DNA of 57,825 nt, taken from the NCBI RefSeq assembly GCF_014196625.1, contig NZ_JACIDZ010000013.1:114354-172178 (forward strand), written 5' to 3'. Source of the stretch: Martelella radicis (GTDB lineage: Bacteria > Pseudomonadota > Alphaproteobacteria > Rhizobiales > Rhizobiaceae). The notes beneath the pieces were generated by a model, which saw nothing but the letters and a program-made list of their open reading frames with translations, searched no databases and was not told the DNA's origin. Below, one piece after another: positions 34,290 through 49,756 of the stretch (position 1 is the stretch's first letter; every line of letters starts with the position of its first letter). Both the position numbers and the translations under genes were made by a program.

Positions 34290-34499
34290 ATGGCGAGCAC
34301 CCTTGAAAAGACGCGCATCTCCGATGCCGAAATGGAACAGCGACGCCGGCTGGTCAACAGCGCCGATCATTCCAATGCCATGGAAGGCCTGAAGCGCGAT
34401 CCTGCCACCGACCAAATTTTCGAGGCTTTCATTCGCGGCGAGATCGAGGCCACCGACATCGTTCCGATGCTCAAAGAGTTCCGCGCCGCCAACGGATGA
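34290..34499 (+). CDS. VbhA-like antitoxin of a Fic toxin
   Basis: 69-aa class I Fic inhibitor. The inhibitory helix motif S-x-x-x-E-G is present as S28, E32 and G33 (HSNAMEG); the Glu blocks ATP gamma-phosphate binding in the partner Fic active site. A C-terminal segment (EAFIRGEIEATDIVPMLKEF) is typical of the family. A GAAGAAGG ribosome site precedes ATG 34290. The stop overlaps the toxin start by 4 bp (ATGA), giving coupled translation. Confidence 0.88.
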   Translation: MASTLEKTRISDAEMEQRRRLVNSADHSNAMEGLKRDPATDQIFEAFIRGEIEATDIVPMLKEFRAANG

Positions 34500-35410
34500 C
34501 GAACTACGCTTACGAAAACCGTACCCTCAAGAACATCGATGGCTTAACCGATCACGCCAAGCTCTCTGCCGTTGAGGCGGAACGGGTTGCGGGCCGGCTC
34601 ATCGAACTGCGTCTTGGGGGTGGGCCGCAGCCGACCTTTGATGCCCGGCATCTGAAAGCGCTTCACCATCATCTTTTTCAGGACGTCTATGAATGGGCCG
34701 GGCGCACCCGAGACGAGTGGGTACAGCTTTCTGATGGCACTGTCGCGACCATGCCGAAAATGCAGAAGATTGATGGCGAGCAATTCGCGATTGGACCGGC
34801 CATTTCCAGCGCACTGAACCGATTTTCCGACGACCTGCGCGGTCAGAATTTCCTGCGCGGTTTCGACAGGGAGACGTTTGCCGACCAGGCCGCAGTCTAC
34901 TTTAATCGGCTCAACTCGATTCATCCGTTTCGCGAAGGCAATGGCCGGGCGCAGAGGGAATTCATGACTGCGCTGGCGAAGAACGCCGGTCACGAACTCA
35001 ATTTTGATGTCGTGTCGGCCGAGCGCATGGCGCAAGCCAGTATTGCCGGTCATGAACGCGGCGATGTGGATGCCTTGAAGCGTATGTTCCGCGAGATCTC
35101 TGATCCTGAACGTGTGCAAGCCTTGGAGAAGGCACAGAATTTCCTGACCTCGCAAGGCTTTGACTGGCAAAATCGCTATATGGCAACGACTGAGCCTGGC
35201 CGTCGCTATGATGGCGTTCTGGTCGGGGTCGGCGGGTCGGATTTCATGATGCATGACAAGCAGAATATTCTCGTCGGCAAGACAAAAGACCTGCCAAGGC
35301 CGTTGCCCGAGCAAGGGCAGCATGTGACGTTCGAAACGCCACAGAAGACCCGCGCGAACGTCCGAGAGGGTAGGGGGCGTGACGACGACTTTGGCCACGG
35401 CCTCGGCTAA
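34496..35410 (+). CDS. Fic-family AMP-transferase toxin, VbhT-like
   Basis: 304 aa. Fic proteins add AMP to target proteins; VbhT-type toxins modify gyrase and topoisomerase IV. The Fic motif HPFREGNGR at residues 143-151 is complete (catalytic H143, N149, R151). The flanking core (HLKALHHHLFQDVYEWAGRTR, FNRLNSI) is normal. The last 90 residues differ from VbhT. Instead of a BID translocation domain there is a short module (YDGVLVGVGGSDFMMHD with GQHVTFETP) resembling the KfrB-type small beta domain of plasmid proteins. Cognate antitoxin overlaps upstream. Confidence 0.88.
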   Translation: MTNYAYENRTLKNIDGLTDHAKLSAVEAERVAGRLIELRLGGGPQPTFDARHLKALHHHLFQDVYEWAGRTRDEWVQLSDGTVATMPKMQKIDGEQFAIGPAISSALNRFSDDLRGQNFLRGFDRETFADQAAVYFNRLNSIHPFREGNGRAQREFMTALAKNAGHELNFDVVSAERMAQASIAGHERGDVDALKRMFREISDPERVQALEKAQNFLTSQGFDWQNRYMATTEPGRRYDGVLVGVGGSDFMMHDKQNILVGKTKDLPRPLPEQGQHVTFETPQKTRANVREGRGRDDDFGHGLG

Positions 35411-36387: not shown

Positions 36388-36735
36388 ATGGCAAGGGAAG
36401 TTTTTAGCCGTTTCGATGCGGCCGATTACCTGAAAACCAACGAAGATATTGCTGCCTTCCTGGATGCCGCGATGGAAGAAGGCGGAGACGATCCTGAGTA
36501 TATCGCTGTCGTTCTTGGAACCATTGCGCGAGCGCGCAATATGAGCCAGTTGGCGCGTGACACCGGGCTTTCTCGGGAAGGTCTTTCGCGCGCGCTTTCC
36601 GGCAACGGGAACCCGACAATGGCAACGTTGATGAAAGTGGCCAAAGCGCTCGATCTTAAAATTCAGGTTGTTCCTGCCTTGTCTGCAGGAGCAGCTTCGA
36701 GTGCTTCAGAACATCGAGCCGCTTCCCAAGTGTAG
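36388..36735 (+). CDS. HigA-like antitoxin (addiction module XRE-type)
   Basis: 115 aa. An N-terminal FDAADYLKTNEDIAAFLDAAME segment, which embraces the toxin in this family, is followed by an XRE-type HTH at residues 50-90 (MSQLARDTGLSREGLSRALS with NPTMATLMKVAKALDLKIQV). It neutralises the upstream toxin and probably represses the operon through the TGAC(T/C)TATAGT repeats. The C-terminal 15 residues are disordered Ala/Ser. Confidence 0.88.
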   Translation: MAREVFSRFDAADYLKTNEDIAAFLDAAMEEGGDDPEYIAVVLGTIARARNMSQLARDTGLSREGLSRALSGNGNPTMATLMKVAKALDLKIQVVPALSAGAASSASEHRAASQV

Positions 36736-36807
36736 TCCTGCCGACCTGCTGCGCGGAAGGGCGTTTGATGCCTGTTGATGGCGTGACCACCGTGCGTCAA
36801 CCACGGG

Positions 36808-37059
36808 TCAGTCGCGGTAGCCGCGCTTGCGCTTGCTTTGCTCCAGAATGGCGAGTGCATCATGGGCCTGTCCGGCCGAGGTGAACCAATCGAGCTTCAG
36901 CTGACCGCTGGTCCCGATCCGGCCCCAGCGGCGCACAAGGCACCAGTCTCCGAACAGGCCGCCCTCGATACTGAGATGATAGAACCGCCACTTATTCGTG
37001 GCCGGCTCGATGCGGCGCAGGAGCACTTCAGTCGGGAAAAGATCAAACTGTCCCAGCAT
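36808..37059 (-). CDS. WGR-domain protein
   Basis: 83 aa consisting of little but a WGR domain: NKWRFYHLSIEGGLFGDWCL then VRRWGRIGTSGQLKLDWF. WGR domains bind nucleic acid ends or nicked DNA, best known from PARP enzymes and in some bacterial proteins. The gene starts 2 bp after the coupling-protein stop, so the two are very likely translated together. Small WGR genes beside coupling-protein genes are familiar in alphaproteobacterial transfer regions; a role at the nicked oriT is an attractive inference. Confidence 0.82.
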   Translation of the reverse strand: MLGQFDLFPTEVLLRRIEPATNKWRFYHLSIEGGLFGDWCLVRRWGRIGTSGQLKLDWFTSAGQAHDALAILEQSKRKRGYRD

Positions 37060-37061
37060 CT

Positions 37062-38927
37062 TTAAATCCCCGGCAATTGCCCATCGAACAGGTCGAGCGT
37101 GTCGCCTTCTACCATCGCGGTGTTCCTGGGCGTGTCGACCGGCTCCATTCCCTTGAGAACGTCAATGGCCTCTTTCGGATAGTTTGCGCCACAGTCCGTC
37201 TGACCGGTCTCAATATCGTCGTCAGTCGTGAAACCTTCAAGTCGGCTGGCAGTGATAAGGTCGAGGGTCCATTGCGCTGGCGCTTGAGCATCGCGCGCAT
37301 GGGGGAGGAAGGTATAGGGAACGCGCACCTTGTAGACGTCCTCGCCAATGCCCGTGACGAGGACATCGATACCGTTCTTGCGAGGCCCGAGCTGCGTCTC
37401 GAATTCGGAGCGCTCAATCGTGTTCTCGCGCCGCTCGTCGCGCACCCATTCCTGCCCGTTTCCGCGTGGCTCACGACGATTATAGACCACTGTGGCCTGA
37501 CCGACATCGCTTTCAAGTCGCTGCGCGGTCGGTCCCGCATTCACTTTGGCGATGATCTTCGTTCCGACGATCGACATCCACGCGTCGGCGCGTTCGCGCC
37601 CATAGGTGTCACGGATCTGTGCAATATCCTGAACGCCGAGGCACACGCAAACACCCTTCGATCGTCCGATATCCAGTAGCGCGGAAAACCGGCTGATCTT
37701 CGGTAACTGGGCGAATTCGTCGACGAAAAACCAGATGCGGCGGAGCTTGGCGTCGCCAAGTTCCGGATCGGACACGATGCCGGAGGCAATGGTCAAAAAC
37801 GCGCTGATCCAGCCGTCAGACTGGTCAGAAAACCGGCCAGACTTTTGCAGGATGACGGTGCGCCGATCTGTTTTGTAGAGCAGCCAGTCGCGCAACGAAA
37901 AGCGTTCCAGACCTTCATAATTCGCCCATGCCGTTGCAAGCAGACGCAGCGTGTTCGTATCAGCGGTGAGCGTCGAAAGCGTCGAGGCGACTTGTCGATA
38001 GTCAGCGTCCAGAAAGCGAACCGCATCGGGATGATAGCGATGCGCGACCTCAAGAAGTTCAAGATGGTCACGGCGCGTCTCGGCTACCAGATCGGCCCAC
38101 GTCCACCTTCCAGGGTTCTCATGCATAAGGCGTATGGTGCACGCGGCCAGCACGGCACGAGCCGAGTTGGAAAAGAACCGATCTCTTGATTCAGGGATCA
38201 GTCGCGTGGACAGTTCAACGGCATCCTCTGCAATGCGCAGATCCTTGGCGATATCCCAGACATGCGAGCGCCGATCCTGCGGAGCAATGATGATTGGCTG
38301 CACCCTGGAACCATCCGGCTTGATCGTTGGCGGCAGCTTCTCGGTAAAGTCTCCCTTGATATCGAAGACGAGAACCTTGTCATGTCGCGCGATCGCGGAG
38401 ACGATCAGCCCGATCATGGTCTGCGTCTTGCCGCCGCCAATGGAGCCAAAGATGATGAAGTGTCGCACCTCGCGCTCGAGCGCCAGCCGCCATCCGTTGA
38501 ACCAGTGAAGGCCGTCCCTCTTGTCGATCTTTTCGGCTTTTGCGGCTCGCAGCAGTTCGGGCATGCTTGCGACGGTCCGGCCGGACTTGATCCATTTGTC
38601 CGGTGGCATGAGGAAGGCAATATAGCCGCCGATCAAAATAGCAATGATGCCTGTCACGAGCGTGGCAGTCACCAACCATTGGAGTTTAGACAGATCGGCC
38701 GGGACATAGCCGAGTGCCTGAATGAAGTGACTTCGGCAAAGATCGGAGGACCAGAATTTGAGGCAGTCGACCAACTGCGAAACCGATAGGCGGTAGGCCG
38801 ATCCGTTCGGGGCGTTCCATGAACGAAGCGCAAAAAAATAAACCCAGACAAGTGCCGAGATGCCCACAAGGAAGAGACCGGCATAGAGCAGAATAGCAAA
38901 TTCGGAACGTCTGGGTTTGGTGATCAT
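37062..38927 (-). CDS. VirD4/TrwB/TraD-like conjugative coupling ATPase
   Basis: 621 aa. Two N-terminal membrane helices (about 10-32 and 84-106) anchor a cytoplasmic hexameric motor. Walker A is FGSIGGGKTQT (about 158-168), followed by VLVFDIKGDFTEKLPP. Walker B-like IWFFVDEFAQLPK and the C-terminal GTKIIAKVNAGPTAQ region are present. It links the relaxase-DNA complex to the secretion channel. It is of the TrwB/TraD (TrwB_AAD_bind) type rather than the Ti TraG type usually found beside TraC and TraD. The ATG overlaps the traD stop by 4 bp. Confidence 0.88.
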   Translation of the reverse strand: MITKPRRSEFAILLYAGLFLVGISALVWVYFFALRSWNAPNGSAYRLSVSQLVDCLKFWSSDLCRSHFIQALGYVPADLSKLQWLVTATLVTGIIAILIGGYIAFLMPPDKWIKSGRTVASMPELLRAAKAEKIDKRDGLHWFNGWRLALEREVRHFIIFGSIGGGKTQTMIGLIVSAIARHDKVLVFDIKGDFTEKLPPTIKPDGSRVQPIIIAPQDRRSHVWDIAKDLRIAEDAVELSTRLIPESRDRFFSNSARAVLAACTIRLMHENPGRWTWADLVAETRRDHLELLEVAHRYHPDAVRFLDADYRQVASTLSTLTADTNTLRLLATAWANYEGLERFSLRDWLLYKTDRRTVILQKSGRFSDQSDGWISAFLTIASGIVSDPELGDAKLRRIWFFVDEFAQLPKISRFSALLDIGRSKGVCVCLGVQDIAQIRDTYGRERADAWMSIVGTKIIAKVNAGPTAQRLESDVGQATVVYNRREPRGNGQEWVRDERRENTIERSEFETQLGPRKNGIDVLVTGIGEDVYKVRVPYTFLPHARDAQAPAQWTLDLITASRLEGFTTDDDIETGQTDCGANYPKEAIDVLKGMEPVDTPRNTAMVEGDTLDLFDGQLPGI

Positions 38928-39178
38928 TGGCGCAACGCCTCGCGACCCAGCTTGATCATTTGTTCGCGAAGTCGAGCGTCACCCTTTCTCCGATTTCCTG
39001 TCAGCAGAACGCCAAGAATGTAGGCGCGGTCCTCATCTCCGAGGCTTGCTTTGATGACCAGTCCGCCAAGCTCGATCTTGTGACGGGTGTCTTCGCTTCG
39101 TTCGCGCTTGCGCATTTTTCTATACTCGCCTTGCAGGGTGCTAAGCGTTCTGCGCAACGCCAGAAGGTCGCTGTTCAT
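38924..39178 (-). CDS. traD: Ti-type conjugal transfer protein TraD
   Basis: 84 aa. The core matches the small TraD of Agrobacterium/rhizobial plasmids: KRERSEDTRHKIELGGLVIK then ASLGDEDRAYILGVLLTG. It is a probable relaxosome accessory protein. ATG 39178 has GGGAGG directly adjacent, an unusually short spacing, and overlaps traC by 38 bp, so translation may depend on ribosomes finishing traC. Its stop overlaps the coupling-protein start. Confidence 0.75.
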   Translation of the reverse strand: MNSDLLALRRTLSTLQGEYRKMRKRERSEDTRHKIELGGLVIKASLGDEDRAYILGVLLTGNRRKGDARLREQMIKLGREALRQ

Positions 39179-39380
39179 CCTCCCGCCCGGCGCGAAAGGA
39201 GTGAACCATCTCGGCAAATGCCGCCTCAAGTTCATTCTCCGAAAGATCAAGGGTTTCGACGCCGGCCTTCATGGCGATTTGTCCAATCCTGAGTGCTTCC
39301 TTTTCTTCAGCTTCGCGCAGCTGCTTTTGCAGAGTTCTGATCTGGTCACGGATCGCGGAAGGGGATTTGGCGCGGGCCAT
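39141..39380 (-). CDS. traC: Ti-type conjugal transfer protein TraC
   Basis: 79 aa. Matches rhizobial TraC: MARAKSPSAIRDQIRTLQKQ, then a coiled coil with EKEALRIGQIAMKAGVETLD and LSENELEAAFAEMVHSF. A relaxosome accessory factor thought to assist oriT nicking. ATG 39380 is preceded by a strong AAAAGGAG ribosome site. It is the first gene of the minus-strand transfer operon traC-traD-coupling protein-WGR, divergent from traA across the oriT region, the same arrangement as in Ti plasmids. Confidence 0.8.
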   Translation of the reverse strand: MARAKSPSAIRDQIRTLQKQLREAEEKEALRIGQIAMKAGVETLDLSENELEAAFAEMVHSFRAGREDEQRPSGVAQNA

Positions 39381-39516
39381 GTTTTTCTCCTTTTCGGCAT
39401 TGAACGGTGAGAAGATTGCAGCGATGTTCTGTGTTTGTAAACACCGATGATGCATGAAAATGAACCCATGCGATGTAAGGTGGATCGGCGCAGCCGATAC
39501 CGCACTCCGTCATGCG

Positions 39517-39544
39517 AACAAAACGATCGTTTTGTTAAATGCGC
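39517..39544 (+). other. Probable origin of transfer (oriT), RSF1010/R1162-like
   Basis: A perfect 20-bp palindrome AACAAAACGATCGTTTTGTT (39517-39536) is followed at once by TAAATGCGC (39536-39544). In the R1162/RSF1010 and Ti oriT family an inverted repeat is followed by TAA(A/G)TGCGC, with the nick in that core. Position between divergent traC and traA, and a MOBQ-type relaxase next door, agree. Here the core continues ACTT rather than the usual CCCT. Confidence 0.7.
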
Positions 39545-39549
39545 ACTTA

Positions 39550-39570
39550 TACATTGTTTTCAACAATGTA
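39550..39570 (+). promoter_or_regulatory. Inverted repeat in the traA leader
   Basis: TACATTGTT-TTC-AACAATGTA, a perfect 9-bp inverted repeat with 3-nt spacer, 19 bp before the traA start and just beyond the oriT core. It could bind a regulator or relaxosome protein, or form a hairpin in the traA leader. Confidence 0.5.
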
Positions 39571-39588
39571 AGATGGTACGCGGGTTCC

Positions 39589-42500
39589 ATGGCGATCTAT
39601 CATTTGCGCGCTCATCAGATATCCCGTGGCAAAGGGCAGAGTGCCGTTGCTGCCGCAGCATACCGCCACGCGACACATATGAACGTCGCACGCTCTGGCG
39701 AGATCGCCGACTACAGCCGAAAGAAGGGCTGTATCCACAGTGAAGTCGCATTGCCCGAAGGCGCCCCGCGGTGGATACATGCGTGGCATGATCGATATTC
39801 GCCACATGAGCTTGCCGAGCATTTCTGGAACCGTGTCGAAACCAGCGAAAAGCGCGATGACGCTCAACTCGCGCACGAGTTCGTCGTCGCGCTGCCCGTT
39901 GAGTTGTCCGTAGAGCAGAATAAGGCTCTGGTTCGTGACTTTGTGCGGGATCAGTTCGCGGCCCGCGGGCAGGTGGCAGACTGGAACTATCATGATGCTA
40001 CAGGCAATCCGCATGTTCACATCATGGTGGCGTTGCGGCCGCTGACAGAGACAGGTTTTGGCCCAAAACGGGTTCCGGTTCTTGATGGTGACGGTGAACC
40101 GGTCCGAAGGCCGCCAAAGGTCGAGGGTCAAAAAGGGGAGATCGTCTATCAGCACTTCGCAGGATGGAGGGACCGTCTTCCCGAGATCCGCGCGGCGTGG
40201 TCACAGGAGGTCAATCGTCATTTGGTCGAGCATGGCTATGACACGACGGTCGACCATCGCAGCTTTGAAGATCGGGACATTCCGCTGGAGCCGACGACGC
40301 ATCGCGGTCCCGCCGTTGACGACATGGAAGCGCGCGGCATTCAGACCGAGATGGTGCAGCAGCACCACCAGGTCATGCGTGAGAATTTCCGCAGGCTGGC
40401 GGAAGATCCTTCGCTTGTTGTGAAAATGATCACGGCGGAAAAGTCCGTCTTCGATGAGCGCGATGTTGCGAAGTTGATCCACCGGTATGCGTCAACGTCT
40501 GAAGAATTTACAGGACTTTTCCTGCGGGTTGGCGCGCTCGATAACCTTGTGACGCTTTCCCAGGAAATCCGCGACCCGTTCACGAACAAGCTTCTTGAGC
40601 GGGAGAAAATGACGACGCGAGACGTTCTGCATATGGAAGCGCGGATGATCGACGGCGTGCGTCAGCGCGCGACGGATCAGTCGTTCGGCGCCCCGCCGCG
40701 TCGTGTCGAGAAGGCGCTTGCGGAATTCTCGAAGTCGCATGGATTTTCTCTTTCCGACGAACAGGCAATGGTGGTCCGCGCCGTCACGTCCGATCGCGGC
40801 GTTTCGACGGTGGTCGGCTATGCGGGTGCGGGTAAGTCCACGGTGATGGATGTCGTGCGGCAGGTGTACGAAGGGCAGGGGCGGCGTGTTGTTGGCGGTG
40901 CGCTTGCCGGCAAGGCGGCCGAGGGCTTGTCTGAATCGGCGGGTATCGAGAGCCGGACGCTGGCGTCCTGGCGCATGTCGTGGGAGCACGACAAGCACCG
41001 CCTTCAGAAAGGCGACGTGTTCGTTCTCGATGAAGCCGGAATGGTCTCATCAAACGACATGGCGATGTTGGTTGATGCGGTGAACGCGGCACAGGCCAAG
41101 CTTATTCTTGTTGGAGATGCGCGTCAGCTTCAGCCTATTCAGGCTGGCGCTGCGTTTCGCGCCATTGCGGATAATACCGGGTTTATCGAACTGACCGAGG
41201 TGCGCCGTCAAAGCGAAGCTTGGATGCGGGACGCCTCCCTGGCATTTGGCCGCGGCGATAGTCGCGCGGCGCTTGAAGCGTATGCCGACAAGGGACACAT
41301 CCATATCCTGAGCCATCGTGACGACGCCATGTCTGAGCTGGTTGGAGCATGGGGTGCCGATTGGCGTGCAGGCGCCGATACACTGATGCTGGCGCACACC
41401 AAGGACGCGGTGTTCAGTCTGAATGAACGGGCACGCCATATCATCAAGGCGCACGGGGGGCTTCAAAACGAAGTGTCGTTTGACGCGGTGCGTGGGCCGC
41501 GCGCTTTCGCCGTTGGCGACCGGCTGTTGTTCCTGGAAAATGATCGCGACCTTGGCGTCAAGAACGGGATGCTGGCGACCGTTGAGAAAGCGAATGACGG
41601 CATTCTTGACGTTCGGCTTGACAATGGCAGGGCCGTTACGGTCAACCATGAGCATTACAATAACGTTGATTATGGCTACGCGACCACGATCCATAAATCT
41701 CAAGGATCGACTGTCGACCGGGTGCATGTGCTTGCCACACAGATGATGGATGCGCAGCTTTCCTATGTCGCGCTATCGCGTCATCGCCAGACGGTCACGC
41801 TTTATGCAGGTCGGAATGACTTTCCTGAAACCACGGATTTGCTGGACACGCTGTCGCGCGACCGACTCAAGGATTCAACATTGGCCTATGAGCATACGCC
41901 CGACTATCAGCTCGAACGTGACGCGTTTGTGCGGCGGCGCGACCTTCCGGACATTGGCGAACTGCGCGATCTTTGGCGTCGATCGCTCGATGCCATGCGT
42001 TCGCGGTTCGCGGCTATTGGGGAACGGTTCAGGGCAATCTCCGAGCGGCTTTCGCTTGCGCGTCCACAAGCCGTTGAAGTCTCGTCAAATGTCCCGCCTG
42101 CCGCCGGCGCGCGGGCTGTTGAGGCTAAAAGGGAGATCAGGCTTCCCGAATTGACGCCAGCGGTCAGTAAGGCGCTTTCCCGGCTTTCGGAAGTGGACCG
42201 CAACACGAAAGGCTATAGCGGCAAACGGGGGCGCTGGTTCCGCGCTGCCGAAACCGAGCTGACGCAGATGTCGTCAGCAACCGATCTGGTCATGTTCAAT
42301 GACCAGATCGCAGCGCTCGTTTCTCCGGTTGAGGTTCGATCTCTCGGTCGCGATCCGGATGAGAACAAGTTTCAGTCACTTGTCGCGCATCTTCCGCCAT
42401 CGGCGCAGACCTTCATCAAGGAAAATTGGCAGCTCGTGCATGTCGGTCAGCTGGCCGCAGACGACAAGAGCCGCGTTGATGTTGCGTCCGTCATGGTCAC

Positions 42501-43344
42501 GGAGCGGCGCGATGCTGGCCTTGAGGCCGATTATGAAAAGGAGCGGGCACGTTATCGCCTTCCGGATGAACCGCTTATTCCGGCCGTGACGAAATGGCCC
42601 GTTTCGGTCGAAGCCGTTGCCCGTGATCCTGCCAATCAGGCGGCCGTCACCAAGGCCCTGCACCAGTCTGCGCTTCAGAACATGGGCAAGGTCTGGCGCG
42701 ATCCGGCCGCGATCCTCGACAAGCTGGCGGCGGCGGTGACGGATGGCTCTGATGTCATTCAGGTCCTCAAAGCGATGGACGAAAACCCGGCATCACTAGG
42801 CGATTTGCACGGCAAAACAAACTTCCTGGGGCGTCCTGATGAGGAGCGGAAAGCAGCACTTGCGGCGGTGATGCCGGCGACCAGTAGCGCTGATGCCTTT
42901 GTCGGATCATTGAAGGTGAGCATTGAGGGTGCCGAAAAGTCGGAGAGAAAGCTGCGAAGCCAGATGGCCGCGCCAATCGACGGACTGTCGCCGGCCGCCA
43001 AAGATGTGCTGGCCTCTCTGTCGGAAGCCTCCAGTCTTCCGGAACGCTCTGACGAACGTCGCGCTCTTGAAAGGGCGGCGGTCGAGGACAGGGAAGCGAT
43101 CGGCCAACTACGGGGTGTCGCTCATGATATCAGTGCAAGGTTTGGTGACGGCAGTGGTGTGCCGGACCGGGATATGATCGCACGTGCGATGCCGGATCTT
43201 TCTCCAGAAGAAAGATCGGGGATCTATCGTGATGCCCGCCAGATCTGCGCTGCCTATGACAGGTGTGTTGAGATCGATCGGACACAACGGCGCGAAACTC
43301 GCCTCGAGCACGAGAAGTCGCGGTATCATTCTATCGGGAGATAA
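39589..43344 (+). CDS. traA: TraA relaxase-helicase (MOBQ, Ti type)
   Basis: 1251 aa. The N-terminal 250 residues are a MobA/MobL relaxase: catalytic Tyr at Y25 (AYRHATHM), and the metal-binding three-His motif at H135, H142 and H144 (HDATGNPHVHIM). Residues 380-780 are a RecD2/TraI-type helicase with Walker A VVGYAGAGKST (about 408-418), FVLDEAGMVSS and a C-terminal YATTIHKSQGSTVDRVHV motif. The last 400 residues are helical and unassigned. It nicks oriT and leads the strand into the recipient. ATG 39589 gives the conserved MAIYHLRAHQISRG start, although its ribosome site is poor. Confidence 0.92.
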   Translation: MAIYHLRAHQISRGKGQSAVAAAAYRHATHMNVARSGEIADYSRKKGCIHSEVALPEGAPRWIHAWHDRYSPHELAEHFWNRVETSEKRDDAQLAHEFVVALPVELSVEQNKALVRDFVRDQFAARGQVADWNYHDATGNPHVHIMVALRPLTETGFGPKRVPVLDGDGEPVRRPPKVEGQKGEIVYQHFAGWRDRLPEIRAAWSQEVNRHLVEHGYDTTVDHRSFEDRDIPLEPTTHRGPAVDDMEARGIQTEMVQQHHQVMRENFRRLAEDPSLVVKMITAEKSVFDERDVAKLIHRYASTSEEFTGLFLRVGALDNLVTLSQEIRDPFTNKLLEREKMTTRDVLHMEARMIDGVRQRATDQSFGAPPRRVEKALAEFSKSHGFSLSDEQAMVVRAVTSDRGVSTVVGYAGAGKSTVMDVVRQVYEGQGRRVVGGALAGKAAEGLSESAGIESRTLASWRMSWEHDKHRLQKGDVFVLDEAGMVSSNDMAMLVDAVNAAQAKLILVGDARQLQPIQAGAAFRAIADNTGFIELTEVRRQSEAWMRDASLAFGRGDSRAALEAYADKGHIHILSHRDDAMSELVGAWGADWRAGADTLMLAHTKDAVFSLNERARHIIKAHGGLQNEVSFDAVRGPRAFAVGDRLLFLENDRDLGVKNGMLATVEKANDGILDVRLDNGRAVTVNHEHYNNVDYGYATTIHKSQGSTVDRVHVLATQMMDAQLSYVALSRHRQTVTLYAGRNDFPETTDLLDTLSRDRLKDSTLAYEHTPDYQLERDAFVRRRDLPDIGELRDLWRRSLDAMRSRFAAIGERFRAISERLSLARPQAVEVSSNVPPAAGARAVEAKREIRLPELTPAVSKALSRLSEVDRNTKGYSGKRGRWFRAAETELTQMSSATDLVMFNDQIAALVSPVEVRSLGRDPDENKFQSLVAHLPPSAQTFIKENWQLVHVGQLAADDKSRVDVASVMVTERRDAGLEADYEKERARYRLPDEPLIPAVTKWPVSVEAVARDPANQAAVTKALHQSALQNMGKVWRDPAAILDKLAAAVTDGSDVIQVLKAMDENPASLGDLHGKTNFLGRPDEERKAALAAVMPATSSADAFVGSLKVSIEGAEKSERKLRSQMAAPIDGLSPAAKDVLASLSEASSLPERSDERRALERAAVEDREAIGQLRGVAHDISARFGDGSGVPDRDMIARAMPDLSPEERSGIYRDARQICAAYDRCVEIDRTQRRETRLEHEKSRYHSIGR

Positions 43345-43472
43345 GCGCTCCAAAATCGGCAAGAATGGTGACGGATCGCCCTTTTGTTCCCTTGTATGTT
43401 GCATCAAGGTGGCCATTGTGGTGAATTGCAGATGTAATACGCTGCAGTTTCCGCACCGCAAGAGGTTTTCCC

Positions 43473-43976
43473 ATGCGCATCGCGATCAGCCTGGCACTGG
43501 CTGTGCTCGCTGGCTGTACCAGCACAAGAGACACCCCGTCGGATTCCCCTACGATCAATTACATCGACAATCAAGTCCATCTCGTTCGAAGCGAGTTGAA
43601 CGACGCGGCGCTCTATCAAAATGTCCTGGAGCCGCGCGCTACCAATACGGTTGAGGTGCGCAATCCGGAGATTGCCCAAGGCCCGCTTATGAAGATCGTT
43701 CATGCCGAATGGCAGGGAACGTTGGATGAACTGACAACGCGGGTTGCCAGCGAAGTGGACTATAGCGTGTCAGCGTCCGGGGAAAAGTCCGGCGCTCCGA
43801 TTTTGATCTCGACCAATTTCTACAATCTGACGGCCTTGGGATTGCTTCGGGAAGCCTATGGGCAGGCGAAGGGGCGAGCGCGCCTTGTGATCGATCAGGG
43901 CGCCAGACACATGACGATCTATTACGCTCGCCCTGAGCAAAGCCCGATCCCGCATCAGGAGGACCTCAAGCCGTGA
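43473..43976 (+). CDS. dotD: DotD/TraH-like lipoprotein of type IVB secretion
   Basis: 167-aa predicted outer-membrane lipoprotein. The signal peptide ends in the lipobox LAGC with C15 as lipidated residue. The soluble part (INYIDNQVHLVRSELNDAAL, PLMKIVHAEWQGTLDELTTR and a beta-rich C-terminus ending HMTIYYARPEQ) resembles DotD and IncI TraH, a secretin-N0-like domain of the core complex. The stop overlaps the dotC start by 4 bp (GTGA). Assignment rests on sequence pattern plus the order DotD-DotC-DotB, equal to traH-traI-traJ of IncI plasmids. Confidence 0.78.
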   Translation: MRIAISLALAVLAGCTSTRDTPSDSPTINYIDNQVHLVRSELNDAALYQNVLEPRATNTVEVRNPEIAQGPLMKIVHAEWQGTLDELTTRVASEVDYSVSASGEKSGAPILISTNFYNLTALGLLREAYGQAKGRARLVIDQGARHMTIYYARPEQSPIPHQEDLKP

Positions 43977-44887
43977 GCCAGCCCCTTTTTCATCGTCGCA
44001 ACCGTGCCATGGCGCTGACAGGTTTTCTTATGGCCGCGCTTTTGTCTTCATGCACAACCATGAAGGACGAAACCCCGGAACCGCCGCCCATCCCGCAGCT
44101 CGGCGGCCCTGACGACCTCACCAATCCGAGATATGCGCCGTTGTCTTACAAGCAGTTTGCTTCCCGGGCCAAACGCGGAAAGCTTGGCGGGACCGAGGTT
44201 GAGGAGCAGCGCTATTCGGTCCTTCGGGACGCTGCCCTTGCCTATGGGGCACAAGCAGGATTTGAGCGGCGCAGCTGGGAGATCATGAACGATCTGGAGC
44301 GTGAATCGGTCAAGCTCTCTGAAACCTTCAATTTCAACCGGGTCGCGTTCAAGGCGCCGCGGGAAACAGGCTACGTGTTGCCGCCGGTGATCACCCGCGC
44401 CACGGCAGCGATCAATGTCACCGACAACGGCCGCAAGAGCGTCGCCGCCGACGAATACTACCGCATCGAGGAGCCCGGCCGACTGGTCGCCATTCTGCCG
44501 ACCTGGCGCGACTATCTTGTGCTCCCGCTCGATACGCCGCGTGAGCCTGACGATCGCCTGTTGCCCAAGGATGACGATGAAACGAAGATCTGGTCGCAAT
44601 ATCTCGATGAGGGCTGGGCGCAGGGCGTGCAGCAGGCCGACGCTGCTTTGCAGGAAAACATGAACCTGTTGCGGCGCGACTACCTCGGCATGGTCGAGTA
44701 TCGCAAGGCGTTGGAAGCCGGCCTTATTACCAACCTCGTGCTGAAGTCGAGCGAGACGCGCGCGGCCGGTGATGTCGACGAGCTCTATATCGGGGAGCGC
44801 CGTGTGGAGATCGACGATGCCGCCCGGTTCGTCAAGAACCCTGCCCGATGGAAGCCGATCCAGAGACGTTTTCAGGTGGCCAAGTAA
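43973..44887 (+). CDS. dotC: DotC/TraI-like lipoprotein of type IVB secretion
   Basis: 304 aa. The lipobox LLSSC (C27) makes it an outer-membrane lipoprotein. The DotC pattern is clear: ALAYGAQAGFERRSWEIMND, a TGYVLPPVITRATAA stretch, PTWRDYLVLPLDTP, then DEGWAQGVQQADAAL and LRRDYLGMVEYRKALEAGL. With DotD and DotH it builds the outer-membrane core of Dot/Icm-type channels; no DotH homologue is seen here. It starts at GTG 43973 inside the dotD stop (an ATG at 44009 is also possible). Its TAA stop shares a base with the dotB ATG (TAATG). Confidence 0.85.
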   Translation: MSQPLFHRRNRAMALTGFLMAALLSSCTTMKDETPEPPPIPQLGGPDDLTNPRYAPLSYKQFASRAKRGKLGGTEVEEQRYSVLRDAALAYGAQAGFERRSWEIMNDLERESVKLSETFNFNRVAFKAPRETGYVLPPVITRATAAINVTDNGRKSVAADEYYRIEEPGRLVAILPTWRDYLVLPLDTPREPDDRLLPKDDDETKIWSQYLDEGWAQGVQQADAALQENMNLLRRDYLGMVEYRKALEAGLITNLVLKSSETRAAGDVDELYIGERRVEIDDAARFVKNPARWKPIQRRFQVAK

Positions 44888-46095
44888 TGCCGGCGGTTGA
44901 TCTCTCGAATTTGACGGAAGACGCCTATGACCCAAGGGAACCCTATGCCCGTGTCCTGACCCATGAGCCGTTGCGTTTTGACGGCGACATGGACCCGTTT
45001 CAACAGTTGCTGGTCGGGGCCTCCATCAAAGGGGCGTCGGACATCCGGATACAGACCGACAGTCGTATCCGGATCAAGATGCACGGCACGCAGCATTTTG
45101 CGACGGCAAAGCCCCTGAACGCCTCCGAGGTTTTGAGTATCCTGAGCCATATGTGGCGGTCGGAAGATGCCTTCAGCATTCTGCGTCAAGGGCGGCCGCT
45201 GGACTTTTCGTTCGAGGTGCCGATCGATCGCCACCGACGTCAGCGTTTCCGCGTGAACGCCAAGGGCGTGATGAAAGGTGCCGGCGACGGCATTTCCATG
45301 ACGATGCGGCCGCTGCCGACAAAAACCCCCACCATCGATGATGTTGGCCTGGACCGCGAGGTCCGCCCACACATGTCGCCCCAGCATGGCATCGTCGTTG
45401 TCGCCGGCGCGACGGGTCAGGGAAAGTCCACGACACTTGCCGGGATCACGCGATTTCATCTTGAAAACACGACCGATCCGAAAGCGATCGTCGATCTGCA
45501 GGCGCCAATCGAGTTCACATATTCCGACGTGCTGACCGATCACAGCGACTGCGCATCCTCCATCGAGCAGTCGGAAATCGGCGAAGGGCGCAACCTGCCA
45601 TCTTTCGGCGACGGGGTGTGGGCGGCACTGCGCTGCGCGCCTGATATTATTTCGTTGGGCGAGGCCCGCGACAAAGCTTCCCTCGAGGGATGCCTTGAGG
45701 CCAGTCTGACCGGCCACTTGGTTTACACCACCACGCATGCCGGATCGGTTGCGGAAGGCTTGCGACGAATGGTCGTGAACTTTCCGGCCGAAGACCGCGA
45801 TGCGCGCGCATTCGACCTGATCACGTCGCTCCAGCTCTTCGTCGTTCAGCACCTGGTCCGCACCAGCGACCATCGCGGCCGCGTGCCGCTGCGCGAGTAT
45901 CTGCTGTTTGATGACTATGTGCGCGATCAGTTTGTTTCTGTCCCTATCGGCGACTGGCCCAAGGTTGTGAGCCGTCTGATGCAGGAGCCGGCCGACCGCG
46001 TTCTTGCACGCTCCATGCATGATGCGGCCCAGCAGAAAGTTGATGAGGGCAAGGTTTCGTATGACGACGTCAGGCGATTGCTGCCGCGCCATTAG
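44887..46095 (+). CDS. dotB: DotB/TraJ-like type IVB secretion ATPase
   Basis: 402-aa VirB11/PilT-class hexameric ATPase. The N-terminal domain contains IKGASDIRIQTDSRIRIKMH. Walker A is GATGQGKST (174-182, K180). Walker B-like CAPDIISLGEARDKASLEGC and a His-box TGHLVYTTTHAGSVAEGLRR follow, all intact. DotB energises the type IVB channel. The start shares bases with the dotC stop, so dotD-dotC-dotB form one coupled operon. The rest of a type IVB system (DotH, DotG, DotO, DotA, Icm proteins) is not in the window. Confidence 0.87.
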   Translation: MPAVDLSNLTEDAYDPREPYARVLTHEPLRFDGDMDPFQQLLVGASIKGASDIRIQTDSRIRIKMHGTQHFATAKPLNASEVLSILSHMWRSEDAFSILRQGRPLDFSFEVPIDRHRRQRFRVNAKGVMKGAGDGISMTMRPLPTKTPTIDDVGLDREVRPHMSPQHGIVVVAGATGQGKSTTLAGITRFHLENTTDPKAIVDLQAPIEFTYSDVLTDHSDCASSIEQSEIGEGRNLPSFGDGVWAALRCAPDIISLGEARDKASLEGCLEASLTGHLVYTTTHAGSVAEGLRRMVVNFPAEDRDARAFDLITSLQLFVVQHLVRTSDHRGRVPLREYLLFDDYVRDQFVSVPIGDWPKVVSRLMQEPADRVLARSMHDAAQQKVDEGKVSYDDVRRLLPRH

Positions 46096-46122
46096 TGGCT
46101 GATGATCACGAAGGAGGAAGAC

Positions 46123-46428
46123 ATGAAAATTCCCAGGTACCTTCGCCCAGTCAAGGACCAGAAGAGCTATGAGGCCGGCGTCGGAGAACGTGCTGTTCGA
46201 AAGCTTGTCTATTGGCCAATCATCTTGCTTCTCTGCTTGCCGGCCGCAGCCGTGATGGCAGCCGTTGCTCTCTCCTTCGGCCTGTTGTTCCTGAAATTCC
46301 TGAACATAATTGAGACTGCAATTGCAGATCACGACTGGCTCATGTTGTTTTTGATCGCTCTCGCTGCCATGGCTATCCTGTCGCTATGGAAGCTCGCCTA
46401 CGTGATTCATCGGTATTTCATTCTTTAA
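46123..46428 (+). CDS. Small membrane protein, unassigned
   Basis: 101 aa with a basic, soluble N-terminus of about 30 residues and two strong hydrophobic stretches (about 30-60 and 67-90). AAGGAGGAAG just upstream of ATG 46123 is an excellent ribosome site, and it lies 27 bp after dotB, so it is almost surely part of that operon. Its position is where IncI plasmids carry traK/IcmT, also a small membrane protein, but no clear sequence likeness was seen. It may be a divergent channel component. Confidence 0.65.
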   Translation: MKIPRYLRPVKDQKSYEAGVGERAVRKLVYWPIILLLCLPAAAVMAAVALSFGLLFLKFLNIIETAIADHDWLMLFLIALAAMAILSLWKLAYVIHRYFIL

Positions 46429-46574
46429 TTAGCATTTGCAGAATGGTGAATGGTCCTAACTCCTTTGTGCCGGGTCCGTAATTTGGCCTGCTTTGGGAAT
46501 GACCACGACGGGTGAAAAAAGGACTGCGGCTTGCTCTTGCCTGCGATTACGCTGAAGCAGCCGTCGCGGGTGCT

Positions 46575-47189
46575 TTAATGTCGATCCCATTCATGCCGCA
46601 GAATAGCGTACTGCATGGTGTTTTCGTAGATTGGATTTCCGGCGCTGTCGTTTTGGAACGTCACATATTCCAAGAATAGGCCTTCCACTCGCATGCCAAG
46701 CTTTTCGCAGAGCCGCCGCGACGAGGCGTTGTGATCTTCAACATACGCGTAGATGCGCCTTGTACTTTGATGAATGAACAACTCGGCAAACAAGGCCTCT
46801 GCCGCCTCTAAAGCATAGCCCTTGCCACTGAACAGTGGATTGAAATTCCAGCCCACTGAAACAGTATCAGGTTGTTGAGGTTTCTCTGGATCGTCAGGCC
46901 AGGCAGGATCTGGATGGATGAACAGGTCGCCAATGAGCTGACCTGATTCCTTCAGGCAAACGGCGACATACTCGTCGTCGCCAGCGCGTTTCAGAACCTC
47001 CCTTTCGGCTGCCGCCAGATCAGCAAGTTTTAGCGAGAAAAAGCAACTCGCAACAGGCTCGCGCAGATATGCGAACAAGGTCTCCGCATCACCCACACGG
47101 AAATTTCTGATGCTCAGACGGTCAGTTTGGATCGTTTTCAACGGCTCAATTCCCTGCGTTCCAGACTTATAGAAAACCAAAGATGCCAT
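46575..47189 (-). CDS. GNAT-family acetyltransferase (RimJ/RimL type)
   Basis: 204 aa. Acetyl-CoA-dependent N-acetyltransferase fold: LKTIQTDRLSIRNFRVGDAE at the start of the domain, SVGWNFNPLFSGKGYALEAA with the G-K-G-Y-A acetyl-CoA loop, then RRIYAYVEDHNASSRRLCEK and LGM. The substrate is unknown (ribosomal protein, amino acid or antibiotic are all possible in this class). A TTG at 47141 would begin exactly at the conserved domain (KTIQTDRL) and may be the true start. It marks the return to ordinary genes after the transfer module. Confidence 0.78.
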   Translation of the reverse strand: MASLVFYKSGTQGIEPLKTIQTDRLSIRNFRVGDAETLFAYLREPVASCFFSLKLADLAAAEREVLKRAGDDEYVAVCLKESGQLIGDLFIHPDPAWPDDPEKPQQPDTVSVGWNFNPLFSGKGYALEAAEALFAELFIHQSTRRIYAYVEDHNASSRRLCEKLGMRVEGLFLEYVTFQNDSAGNPIYENTMQYAILRHEWDRH

Positions 47190-47264
47190 CGCGCGTTTCT
47201 TTGATCGCTATTCTTCCCCGGCATTCGGGGCCGCACGATCTTCTTGCTTTTTTGCCGCTCGGCC

Positions 47265-47714
47265 TCATGAGGTAAATGGGCGGTCGGGGGATGGAGGTGC
47301 CGGCCCGAATGCCTGAGGCGAAAGCACGATATCGGCAAGGGTATAGTGATCGAAGACAGACAGGAAGGATGTGAGTGCTTCGTTCAGTATCGCCGGCAGT
47401 TTGCAGCTTTTCGTGACGAGACACGCATTTCCGGTCGCGAAGCACTCGACAAGCGCAAAATCCGCCTCTGTTGTGCGAATGATCGCGCCGAGATTGATTT
47501 TCTCGGGCGGAAGCGCCAGACGGAAGCCGCCGGAGCGACCGCGAATACTGATCAGGTACCCGTTCCTGGTGAGCGCATTCACGACCTTCATCAGATGTGT
47601 CTTCGAGATCGCATAGGCTGCCGACGTCTCCTCGATCGTGATCAGCCTGTCGCCCGCTGACGCTGCATACATCAGAACGCGCAGAGCATAATCGGAAAAG
47701 GTTGTCAGACGCAT
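47265..47714 (-). CDS. nsrR: NsrR, Rrf2-family nitric-oxide-sensing repressor
   Basis: 149 aa. Rrf2 winged helix (RLTTFSDYALRVLMYAA, SAAYAISKTHLMKVVNALTR, GRSGGFRLALPPEKI) followed by the iron-sulfur ligand cysteines C91, C98 and C104 (CFATGNACLVTKSC). This closely matches NsrR, whose cluster is destroyed by NO, relieving repression. ATG 47714 is used because GGAG lies 7-8 bp upstream and MRLTTFSDYALR is the usual N-terminus. It sits beside nnrU and near nnrS, genes of NO protection, and NsrR-like boxes precede both. Confidence 0.85.
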   Translation of the reverse strand: MRLTTFSDYALRVLMYAASAGDRLITIEETSAAYAISKTHLMKVVNALTRNGYLISIRGRSGGFRLALPPEKINLGAIIRTTEADFALVECFATGNACLVTKSCKLPAILNEALTSFLSVFDHYTLADIVLSPQAFGPAPPSPDRPFTS

Positions 47715-47795
47715 CGGCAAACTCCATGGATGCTGTTTAATGGAATGCAGCCATCAGAGGACATACCGCATCCAACCATTTCCCCTGTAACGGCA

Positions 47796-47820
47796 ATATC
47801 ATATATCGTAAATGAATCTT
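47796..47820 (+). promoter_or_regulatory. Possible NsrR box before nnrU
   Basis: On the minus strand AAGATTCATTT starts a sequence resembling the NsrR palindrome AAGATGYATTT-N-AAATRCATCTT. The first half matches well and the second half (ACGATATATGAT) only partly. It is 29 bp upstream of the nnrU ATG and also faces nsrR. Confidence 0.45.
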
Positions 47821-47848
47821 ATATTTCGCACGGCGACGGGACCGAAAC

Positions 47849-48538
47849 ATGGCGAATTTTCTGCTTGCGATCCTTGCTTTTCTGCTGGCCCATGTCATTC
47901 CACCGGCGCCGCCCGTGCGGGCACGGCTGATTGCCCTGCTGGGGCGTCCTGTCTACCTCTTCACCTATTCTTTTCTGTCGATCGTGTTTCTGGTCTGGAT
48001 CATCGCCGCGGGCCGATCTGCGCCGTTGATTTACCTCTGGTATCCCGCGCCCTGGCAGGCCCTTATTCCGTTGGTCGCGATGCCGTTCGCGTTCTGGTTT
48101 ATCGTCGTGGGGTTGGCGGTGCAAAACCGGGTTTCGATCACGTTTCGGCGCGCTGGGGAGGCGGGCTCACAAGGGCCGATAACCGCAATAACCCGCCACC
48201 CCGTGCTTGTCGGCTTCCTGCTTTGGTCGCTCGCGCACATTCCGCCAAATGGTGATGTTGTTTCGCTGATCCTCTTTGGCGGCATGGGGCTTCTGGCGCT
48301 TGCGGGAATCCCGGTACTCGACCGCCGGGCGCGGCGCCGGCTCAGCGATGCCGAATGGGCGGCAGTCCGCGCGCAAACGTCCATCGTGCCTTTTCTGGCA
48401 ATCCTTGAAGGGCGCGCGCACCTGCGTTCGGAAAGAAACTTCTGGCTTTGGACAGGCCTTGGGCTGGCCTTCTATGTCTGGTTTCTGTTTCAGGGTCACC
48501 GCCTGCTGATCGGCGTTGACCCGCTGACCTGGTTCTAA
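47849..48538 (+). CDS. nnrU: NnrU family membrane protein
   Basis: 229 aa with six or so membrane helices. NnrU-type sequence: an N-terminal LAFLLAHVIPPAPPVRARLI, FTYSFLSIVFLVWIIAAGR, and a conserved loop GPITAITRHPVLVGFLLWSL with the H-P pair. NnrU is needed for full nitrite/NO reduction in Rhodobacter and Paracoccus relatives, with unknown biochemistry; it is similar to NnuR/isoprenylcysteine methyltransferase-like membrane proteins. Convergent with nnrS, 24 bp apart, and divergent from nsrR. Confidence 0.85.
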   Translation: MANFLLAILAFLLAHVIPPAPPVRARLIALLGRPVYLFTYSFLSIVFLVWIIAAGRSAPLIYLWYPAPWQALIPLVAMPFAFWFIVVGLAVQNRVSITFRRAGEAGSQGPITAITRHPVLVGFLLWSLAHIPPNGDVVSLILFGGMGLLALAGIPVLDRRARRRLSDAEWAAVRAQTSIVPFLAILEGRAHLRSERNFWLWTGLGLAFYVWFLFQGHRLLIGVDPLTWF

Positions 48539-48562
48539 CCGATTTCGATCTGCTGCCGCCGC

Positions 48563-49756
48563 TCAATTGCGCGGGCTAAACAGCATGGGCCCGTAAACCA
48601 CGCAGAACCCGGCAAAGGCGAGAACCCAGGCCAGTCCGGCAAGGGGCATCAGCGAGAATGTCCAGCCCGGATTGAAGGCGGCTAGAATGCGCAGAACCAG
48701 TGCGATCATGATGGCCAGATAGATTGCCACGGTTGCCGGTGGAGCGGTCAGCGCATGGCCTGTATGGCCGCGGCTGGCGCGGGTCATGATGGCAAGCGTC
48801 ATGCCGCCGATTGCGCCCACGGTCCAGCAGTGCACGGCAGCACTTTCAGCACCTGCATGGCCTGCGAGCGCTGCATAGCCGGCTAACACAAAGCCCAGAC
48901 TGACCGGCAGAAATGCTAGGTGCAGAATGAAGGCCAGCGGCTCGGCAAGGGTTTTCAGCGGGCGCCAGCGCCATTGCCGCACCAGGTTGAGGATGCCGAT
49001 GGTCATCAGCAGGATGCCCAAAACCTGCTCTTCGAGCGCATAGGCTGGAAGCACGACCCAGGCGCAAAGACCTGCAGCGCTTATGACCATCACAAACCGG
49101 TCGAACTGACCGAAAGAAGGCGGAAGAACCGGATAGTCCCGTTTCTTGAGCCAGTTCCGTGTGAAGCTCGGGACAACCCGACCGCCGATGATCTGGATCA
49201 GCATGATGACCAGTGCAATAGCGGCGCGTTCGCCATAGATCGACGTGCCGTAGCGGATGTTCTCATAATAGAACAGAAGCTGCGTGGCGGTGAGCAGCGA
49301 CAGAACCACGATAAGCTTCAGGTTCCGCCAATTGCGGCCCGCCAAAATTTCCCGCGTTAGAAATCCGATCAGCGCCAGCGGAAGTGCCAAGGCTGCAAGA
49401 TAGACAAACACAGGGGGGAGCGCTGCCGAAAAAGCGACAACGACGCGCGCTCCGAGCCAGAGACCAAACAGGCCCGCTAGCGGCCAACCAACCACCGGCA
49501 GGCGTCCCGTCCAGTTGGGAACGGAGGTCAGAAGAAAGCCTGCGATAATGGCTGGTATATAGCCGAACAGCAATTCGTGGACGTGCCATGAGACAGGCGT
49601 GAACATGCTCGGAACCTGGATGAACCCCAGATACCACGGCACCCAGAGCGCGATCAGCAGTGCTGCGTCAAGCGCGCCGAAAAAGAAGAAGGGTCGGAAG
49701 CCGTAGCTGAAAATCGCTGGCCCTTGCCATGCGCGTTGTCTTGCCATTGTCGTCAT
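48563..49756 (-). CDS. nnrS: NnrS family haem-copper membrane protein
   Basis: 397 aa, about 12 membrane helices. NnrS hallmarks: FSYGFRPFFFFGALDAALLI at the N-terminus, VSWHVHELLFGYIPAIIAGF with the His pair, FLLTSVPNWTGR and VHCWTVGAIGGMTLAIMTRA. NnrS lowers NO damage to iron-sulfur and iron-dinitrosyl targets. An NsrR-like palindrome lies 40-62 bp upstream, so NO-induced expression through NsrR is likely. Confidence 0.88.
   Translation of the reverse strand: MTTMARQRAWQGPAIFSYGFRPFFFFGALDAALLIALWVPWYLGFIQVPSMFTPVSWHVHELLFGYIPAIIAGFLLTSVPNWTGRLPVVGWPLAGLFGLWLGARVVVAFSAALPPVFVYLAALALPLALIGFLTREILAGRNWRNLKLIVVLSLLTATQLLFYYENIRYGTSIYGERAAIALVIMLIQIIGGRVVPSFTRNWLKKRDYPVLPPSFGQFDRFVMVISAAGLCAWVVLPAYALEEQVLGILLMTIGILNLVRQWRWRPLKTLAEPLAFILHLAFLPVSLGFVLAGYAALAGHAGAESAAVHCWTVGAIGGMTLAIMTRASRGHTGHALTAPPATVAIYLAIMIALVLRILAAFNPGWTFSLMPLAGLAWVLAFAGFCVVYGPMLFSPRN

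What the first reader, a model, noticed from the sequence alone, without database searches (positions are those of the whole stretch)
36808..46428. Hybrid conjugation module: Ti-type DNA processing with type IVB (Dot/TraHIJ) channel parts
Seen: TraC, TraD, MOBQ TraA and an RSF1010-like oriT, as in Ti plasmids, but with a TrwB/TraD-type coupling ATPase, a WGR protein and DotD-DotC-DotB directly after traA. Ti-type systems normally use a VirB-like trb channel. DotD, DotC and DotB alone cannot form a known channel; no DotH, DotG, DotO or DotA is visible. Either the rest of a type IVB system lies elsewhere on the replicon or these three serve a reduced, undescribed transfer apparatus.
Basis: partly seen in the sequence, partly recalled or inferred. 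Interest (0 to 1): 0.75.

Follow-up and report, generated by a model that had tools for sequence, protein, structure and literature searches.

The report
Complete two-part plasmid conjugation system
These genes are one half of a plasmid transfer machine whose other half lies on the same DNA piece; it joins a Dot-type channel to a Ti-plasmid-type DNA-processing kit through a borrowed coupling motor, in outline already published for a sister plasmid.

Summary
Observation confirmed. The window is the end of a 172-kb plasmid contig (C13) of a Martelella-like genome. The missing type IVB parts lie on that contig (C13:33821-48811): dotA, dotO, dotI, dotH, dotG, icmT, and weakly assigned traX/icmV- and traQ-like genes. 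The VirB4/TrbE family has no match in the genome. So this is no three-gene apparatus but half of a structurally complete MPF_I/type IVB system with a Ti-type DNA-processing half (MOBQ TraA, TraC, TraD, MOBQ-like oriT). TraA and DotC+DotB trees each put the hybrids in one clade: probably one fusion. The real oddity is coupling: DotM is absent from 10 of 10 hybrid records or genomes tested but present in 5 of 5 conventional MPF_I plasmids, and a TrwB/TraD-type protein stands where TraG or DotL would be. TraA ends in a BID-like secretion signal; three relatives carry a Fic toxin with such a tail. Bartling et al. 2017 already described the superoperon on pMM259 as an Icm/Dot system with traA; the listings and passages I saw do not mention the coupling swap. 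Transfer is untested.

The parts
34496..35410 (+). Fic-family toxin gene, 304 aa, HPFREGNGR motif; here without the BID tail that three relatives have. Neighbour, not core part
   Evidence: PF02661 56.9 bits; motif; no BID region
36808..37059 (-). WGR-domain protein, 83 aa; Martelella-only neighbour among the loci searched
   Evidence: PF05406 69.8 bits; 3 of 18 hybrid loci, all Martelella
37062..38927 (-). TrwB/TraD-type coupling ATPase (T4CP), 621 aa
   Evidence: PF10412 203.5 vs PF02534 62 bits; profile of 4 rows finds TrwB of R388 in the PDB (1e9r, 1.2e-16); best other local profile is F TraD (94 bits) over VirD4 (30)
38924..39250 (-). TraD, accessory relaxosome protein (relatives annotate a start equivalent to 39178)
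   Evidence: PF06412 51.1 bits
39141..39380 (-). TraC, accessory relaxosome protein, 79 aa
   Evidence: PF07820 51.5 bits, scanned as the longer ORF to 39455
39541..39570 (.). Candidate oriT: GCGCACTTA next to a 9-bp perfect inverted repeat (39550-39558 / 39562-39570)
39589..43344 (+). TraA, MOBQ relaxase-helicase, 1251 aa, with C-terminal BID-like region
   Evidence: TIGR02768 890 bits; PF03389, AAA_30; BID region. Scanned with one extra codon, from 39586
43473..43976 (+). DotD/TraH, 167 aa (lipoprotein by family; lipobox by eye only)
   Evidence: PF16816 50.7 bits
43973..44887 (+). DotC/TraI, 304 aa (lipoprotein by family; lipobox by eye only)
   Evidence: PF16932 197 bits
44848..46095 (+). 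DotB/TraJ-type ATPase; 415-aa ORF, pMM259 and AD-3 annotate a start equivalent to 44887 (402 aa)
   Evidence: TIGR02524 231, TIGR02525 206 bits; Walker A GATGQGKS
46102..46428 (+). orf102, small protein (membrane protein by eye) that belongs to the system: its homologue lies beside dotA in Sinorhizobium, Shinella and G424
   Evidence: with positions

Best explanation
The region is the DNA-processing and coupling half, plus three channel genes, of a structurally complete type IVB (MPF_I, IncI/Dot-like) conjugation system split in two on one RepABC plasmid. Proposed working: TraA with TraC and TraD nicks oriT at 39541-39570 (inferred from sequence); the TrwB/TraD-type ATPase recruits the TraA-DNA complex by its C-terminal BID-like signal (inferred) and hands it to a type IVB envelope channel of DotC/DotD/DotH/DotG with DotI, DotA and IcmT, energised by DotO and DotB, the rest of which is encoded at C13:33821-48811 (genes shown; assembly and transfer inferred). 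Relative to known MPF_I systems the DotL/DotM coupling subcomplex is missing and a TrwB/TraD-type coupler stands in for it; relative to Ti-type systems both TraG and the trb channel are replaced.
For: Second half on the same contig: DotA TIGR04346 252 bits (cut-off 100), IcmT NF038220 84 (cut-off 40), DotG NF033900 149 (under its equivalog cut-off of 750); DotI PF11393 162.5, DotH PF12293 182; DotO 35.7% identical over 96% of its length to proteins annotated IcmB and phmmer 2e-80 from Pantoea TraU. repABC on the same contig at 78.5-82.2 kb and a second repC at 49.2 kb. No VirB4 family match in the genome. Conserved order T4CP-TraD-TraC-TraA-DotD-DotC-DotB in 10 of the 11 hybrid loci scanned that cover it; in the eleventh, G617, the contig starts at TraC. 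Hybrids form one clade in TraA (10 of 23 rows, SH-aLRT 100) and in DotC+DotB (10 of 15 rows, 100) with largely matching inner branching. DotM_C (PF23127) in 5 of 5 conventional MPF_I plasmids, 0 of 5 hybrid plasmids, 0 of 5 hybrid-bearing genomes. Purifying selection on both halves (14 transfer-region genes).
Against: No transfer assay. The two blocks are 102 kb apart inside the contig and the contig was not shown to be circular. Two Martelella plasmids have lost parts: lutilitoris lacks the dotO 5' part, the TraQ-like genes and part of the thioredoxin-fold gene; AD-3 has only a dotO fragment and no dotI to icmT in the 66 of 166.5 kb fetched. With single Pantoea proteins as queries only 7 of 22 hit C13 at E <= 0.01, one of them TrbC against the coupler itself at 14 bits; TraH, TraK, TraO, TraQ, TraX and TrbA gave nothing, so several assignments need profiles. 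TraX, TraQ and the unassigned channel genes rest on weak scores or synteny. DotL was excluded by the profile scores of the coupler and by lack of DotM, not by a dedicated DotL family search of the genome.
Confidence: 0.87

Rival explanations
1. Only DotB, DotC and DotD serve: a reduced channel, or parts that remodel a helper plasmid's channel (as recalled for SGI1, which swaps single subunits of its helper).
For: The three genes stand apart from the rest, directly behind traA.
Against: The other core genes are open on the same contig and the same split set recurs in other genera, with the two blocks only about 2 kb apart in Shinella.
Confidence: 0.02
2. The channel mainly delivers proteins (such as Fic toxins) to other cells and DNA transfer is secondary or lost.
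For: BID-tagged Fic in 3 relatives; a Fic gene lies near the module here; a type IVB system with a Zeta/BID gene and no relaxase found is reported on linear Rhizobiaceae plasmids (PMC13293297, passages).
Against: TraA and TraC are kept in 11 of 11 and TraD in 10 of 11 hybrid loci scanned that cover the region, the oriT-like nonamer in 11 of 12, with one base changed in the twelfth; TraA is under purifying selection in the pair tested; the Fic of the window has no BID tail.
Confidence: 0.08
3. A non-functional relic in this strain.
For: Sister plasmids show deletions; the two halves are far apart.
Against: All 15 genes compared with pMM259 (14 transfer-region genes and repC) are open without stops, dN/dS 0.03-0.21.
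Confidence: 0.08

Closest known systems
Icm/Dot T4SS with traA on pMM259 of Martelella mediterranea DSM 17316 (Bartling et al. 2017, PMC5613091; passages read)
   Same: Same genes and order by annotation, 91.6% DNA identity over 99% of 36500-46600; the paper calls it an extremely divergent secretion system whose traA indicates a role in conjugation, and notes synteny in Sinorhizobium sp. CCBAU 05631 and Ochrobactrum anthropi OAB.
   Different: In the passages found the paper says nothing of the coupling protein of this system, of DotL (no occurrence) or of the TraA tail. pMM259 carries a second, VirB-type system; the window's genome has no VirB4 match.
IncI1 R64 / IncM pCTX-M3 (MPF_I, type IVB conjugation)
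   Same: TraH/I/J/K/M/N/O/U/Y homologues make the channel.
   Different: Those use TrbC (DotL) and TrbA (DotM), both needed for transfer (PMC6112013, passages), and MOBP relaxases (recalled); here DotM is absent, the coupler is TrwB/TraD-type and the relaxase MOBQ.
Ti-type Dtr/trb plasmid conjugation
   Same: TraA (TIGR02768 over cut-off), TraC, TraD, oriT between traA and traCD.
   Different: No TraG-type coupler in the module and no VirB4/TrbE match in the genome.
VbhTA / TraA-BID of Bartonella pVbh (Harms et al. 2017, PMC5675462; passages)
   Same: Relaxase with C-terminal BID; Fic toxin with a relaxase-like BID tail on the same plasmid or contig (3 relatives).
   Different: pVbh uses a VirB-type channel; here the channel is type IVB and the coupler TrwB/TraD-type.

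Membership tests
MPF_I / type IVB conjugation system | Core channel set DotA, B, C, D, G, H, I, O and IcmT | tested here: met
   DotB, DotD and DotG are under their NCBIfam equivalog cut-offs
MPF_I / type IVB conjugation system | DotL-DotM (TrbC-TrbA) coupling subcomplex | tested here: not met
   DotM_C 0 of 10 hybrid records or genomes vs 5 of 5 conventional plasmids; coupler scores as TraD/TrwB, not TrbC/DotL
MPF_I / type IVB conjugation system | Accompanying type IVb thin pilus (PilN, PilO2, PilR, PilS, PilV) as in IncI plasmids | tested here: not met
   no tblastn hit on C13 at E <= 1e-4 with Pantoea queries; the PilQ query hits only dotB. Rest of the genome not searched. Not essential to the class (recalled)
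Ti-type conjugation system | TraA relaxase, TraC, TraD, oriT between them | tested here: met
   TIGR02768 over cut-off; TraC and TraD over the Pfam cut-offs, under the NCBIfam cut-offs; oriT-like site
Ti-type conjugation system | TraG (VirD4-type) coupling protein and trb (VirB-like) channel | tested here: not met
BID-tagged T4SS substrate (TraA) | C-terminal BID domain | tested here: inconclusive
   window TraA 28.5 bits, cut-off 29.5; 5 of 8 hybrid TraA scanned pass; a profile of 7 rows finds BepE (4yk3, 8.7e-6) and only Bartonella Beps in the PDB at E <= 0.1; the fold prediction is too poor there, pLDDT under 50
MOBQ oriT | Cleavage at the conserved nick site by TraA | not testable with these tools
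   needs a nicking assay

The most novel reading that the evidence does not exclude
In one clade of Hyphomicrobiales plasmids a type IVB channel lost its DotL/DotM receptor and was re-targeted by a TrwB/TraD-type coupling protein, so that BID-tagged cargo, the TraA relaxase and on some plasmids a VbhT-like Fic toxin, is now exported through a Dot-type channel. BID signals would then be read by couplers outside the VirD4 group and be independent of channel class, and type IVB channels would not need DotL/DotM.
Probability: 0.55. Interest if true: 0.66.

Novelty: new variant of a known kind. Interest (0 to 1): 0.43.

Why it matters
It is a natural coupling-protein swap between two T4SS classes, kept in at least six genera, which makes it testable what a type IVB channel needs from its substrate receptor and whether BID signals depend on VirD4-type couplers. 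In practice, MOB-suite typing (PLSDB) gave MPF_I to none of the seven hybrid plasmids whose typing I read (two of the seven have damaged channels), and two are filed as non-mobilizable, so this family is probably under-counted. The system itself was published in outline in 2017, which limits the surprise.

Tried and rejected
Reduced three-gene channel or helper remodelling: rejected. A trb/VirB channel elsewhere in the genome: no VirB4/TrbE match (the model rang in 1 of 14 control genomes). The first DotM search rang nowhere, controls included, so I repeated it with records known to be MPF_I. Order-wide searches found the T4CP clade (E <= 1e-60) and DotC (E <= 1e-20) in only 1 of 397 genomes each, the window's own; family-wide, DotC in 11 of 394 at E <= 1e-5 (10 strong in six genus codes, 1 weak, G583, which shows no TraA beside it); genus-wide, the T4CP in 8 of 13, own included. 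The search for related loci with DotC gave 3 loci, all titled Martelella. AlphaFold of the TraA C-terminus gave mean pLDDT 60.6 and under 50 across the BID part, so no fold search was run. Fetched but not analysed: L031-L052 beyond their search rows, L064, L068 and L070-L073; L074 and L086-L103 only by profile scan (L097 also in the TraA tree). Trees were quick IQ-TREE runs with flagged long branches (G617, G481, n078, n084; Pantoea, G583). In one search the start codons of the five unnamed hybrid loci and of four of the five non-hybrid TraA loci were rough guesses; the motif was seen in 1 of those 5 non-hybrid loci (Ciceribacter), so that control is weak. Literature: searches, and passages of nine papers, showed no mention of the coupling swap; no paper was read in full and the library holds only openly licensed papers.
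Full report
What is there. The window is G000:C13:114354-172178, the end of a 172,178-bp contig in a 4.99-Mb, 41-contig genome. Its nearest named relatives in the plasmid collection are Martelella: 36500-46600 matches six records over 98-99% at 91.4-92.8% DNA identity, five filed under Martelella and one under Dysgonomonadaceae.

The missing half. Using the second transfer cluster of M. lutilitoris plasmid plas-001 as a DNA probe, the own genome matches at C13:33676-41744 and 45291-50469. Reading C13 gives, on the minus strand from 44296 down to 33821: a 173-aa gene, two TraQ-like genes, DotO (1008 aa), four unassigned genes, a TraX/IcmV-like gene, DotA; and on the plus strand a thioredoxin-fold gene (44403), DotI, DotH, DotG, IcmT (to 48811) and repC (49197). 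Assignments: DotA, IcmT, DotG, DotI, DotH, DotO. TraQ- and TraX-like labels rest on weak scores, and the thioredoxin fold is under the Pfam cut-offs. The halves are 102 kb apart inside the contig; if the contig closes near its ends, dotB and dotA would be about 45.6 kb apart plus any gap, but a simple test found no end overlap. C13 also carries repABC at 78462-82161, so it is most likely a plasmid.

No rival channel. The VirB4/TrbE family PF03135 has no match in the genome. Besides the window's coupler, PF02534 finds one VirD4-like protein on C15 (98634-99758), 1.7 kb from a resolvase-family recombinase.

Recurrence. The DotA-to-IcmT block is complete in own, NC18, Aminobacter, Sinorhizobium (dotO in two frames), Shinella, G617, G588 and G481 and, by annotation, in pMM259. 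It was only partly within the fetched stretch in G424, beyond the contig end in G496, and damaged in M. lutilitoris and AD-3. In Shinella the two blocks are about 2 kb apart, so the wide split in the window looks secondary (inference). The conventional MPF_I loci scanned (Methylosinus, Bosea, P. putida, Pantoea) score far lower and lack the TraA-DotDCB junction.

Origin. The ten hybrid TraAs are one side of a branch among 23 rows (SH-aLRT 100), and the ten hybrid DotC+DotB pairs likewise among 15 (100). In both, Aminobacter pairs with G424 inside a group with Sinorhizobium, G496 and Shinella; G588 pairs with G481; own pairs with pMM259. The order of Sinorhizobium and G496 and the places of G617 and of the Martelella pair differ or are open. 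One fusion followed by joint descent is the simplest reading. Both are quick trees with flagged long branches.

Coupling. The 621-aa coupler scores 203.5 bits with TrwB_AAD_bind and 62 with the VirD4/TraG family, as does its G588 homologue (217 vs 36); by contrast pMM259 VirD4 and the Ciceribacter TraG-like protein score the other way (277 vs 66, 209 vs 60), and Pantoea TrbC scores near threshold with both. In the PDB a profile of four couplers finds TrwB of R388 and, weakly, one HerA-like helicase. DotM_C is present in all five conventional MPF_I plasmids tested and absent from five hybrid plasmids and five hybrid-bearing genomes. In R64 and pCTX-M3 both trbA (DotM) and trbC (DotL) are needed for transfer (PMC6112013, passages). 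So the hybrid appears to have exchanged the receptor end of the machine.

Cargo signal. The C-terminal region of TraA carries a BID-like domain: over the Pfam cut-off in 5 of 8 hybrid TraAs scanned, under it in the window (28.5 vs 29.5), Shinella (24.4) and G617 (26.0); a profile of seven rows finds three Bartonella Bep sequences and nothing else in the PDB at E <= 0.1; a local profile finds the region in 12 of 12 hybrid TraAs, five of which were in the profile. In Aminobacter, Sinorhizobium and G424 a Fic protein bears a tail 54-58% identical to the C-terminus of TraA of the same plasmid (same contig in G424), the kind of pattern that Harms et al. describe for VbhT, there virtually identical (PMC5675462, passages). 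A 2019 review says that the vast majority of BID substrates are linked to VirB/VirD4-like systems and that their VirD4 couplers form one group (PMC6509941, passages); here they sit with a type IVB channel and a TrwB/TraD-type coupler. A Zeta/BID gene beside dot/icm genes on linear Rhizobiaceae plasmids was noted in 2025 (PMC13293297, passages), so the neighbourhood of BID and type IVB genes is not wholly new in print.

oriT. 39541-39570 holds GCGCACTTA and a perfect inverted repeat; on the minus strand this reads TAAGTGCGC after a hairpin, the arrangement I recall for RSF1010. The nonamer is exact in 11 of 12 hybrid loci and GCGCAATTA in G588; in the sequences printed (not G617's) the repeat arms differ between Martelella, the Aminobacter/Sinorhizobium/Shinella group, G588 and G481 yet still pair, by eye. 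The four Martelella rows are near copies.

Function in this strain. All 15 genes compared with pMM259 are open in both, with dN/dS 0.03-0.21, which speaks against decay. No transfer data exist here.

Verdict. The finding is real; its puzzle has a plain solution, already in print in outline: Bartling et al. call the pMM259 superoperon an Icm/Dot T4SS with relaxase traA and judge the plasmid still conjugative. What remains of interest is the coupling swap with BID cargo, which the searches named in Tried and rejected did not find described.

Noticed in passing
L011:12342-14021, L028:26875-28554, L055:4077-5777: Fic toxins whose C-terminal ~250-270 aa are 54-58% identical to the C-terminus of TraA of the same plasmid or contig (VbhT-like); Fic proteins of the Martelella loci (window 34496-35410, L007, L019, L026) lack this tail.
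   Followed up: partly
   Followed up: no
window 46102-46428: orf102 is a conserved member: in Sinorhizobium, Shinella and G424 its homologue lies beside dotA, in Martelella it stands behind dotB.
   Followed up: partly
L007:10048-12235; L026 end and L030: Sister plasmids with damaged channels: M. lutilitoris lacks the equivalent of C13:41745-45290; AD-3 keeps only a dotO fragment and shows no dotI-dotH-dotG-icmT in the 66 of 166.5 kb fetched. The dotO of pSS05631d is split over two frames.
   Followed up: partly
CP070277.1: A record named Dysgonomonadaceae bacterium zrk40 has a plasmid of the same length (166348) and the same match identities as M. lutilitoris plas-001: probably a mix-up or co-culture.
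   Followed up: no
L053:10221-11849 (G000:C15): A second, VirD4-like coupling ATPase near a resolvase-family recombinase on another contig of the same genome.
   Followed up: partly
PMC11104534 (passage): A 2024 survey of the marine mobilome lists DotD, called a chimeric type IVB secretion protein, among the core Pfam models of its elements; possibly the same or similar hybrids.
   Followed up: no
window 17563-20601; C13:49197-50501: A 1012-aa open frame that looks like a Tn3-family transposase (by eye only), and a second repC beside icmT in addition to repABC.
   Followed up: partly
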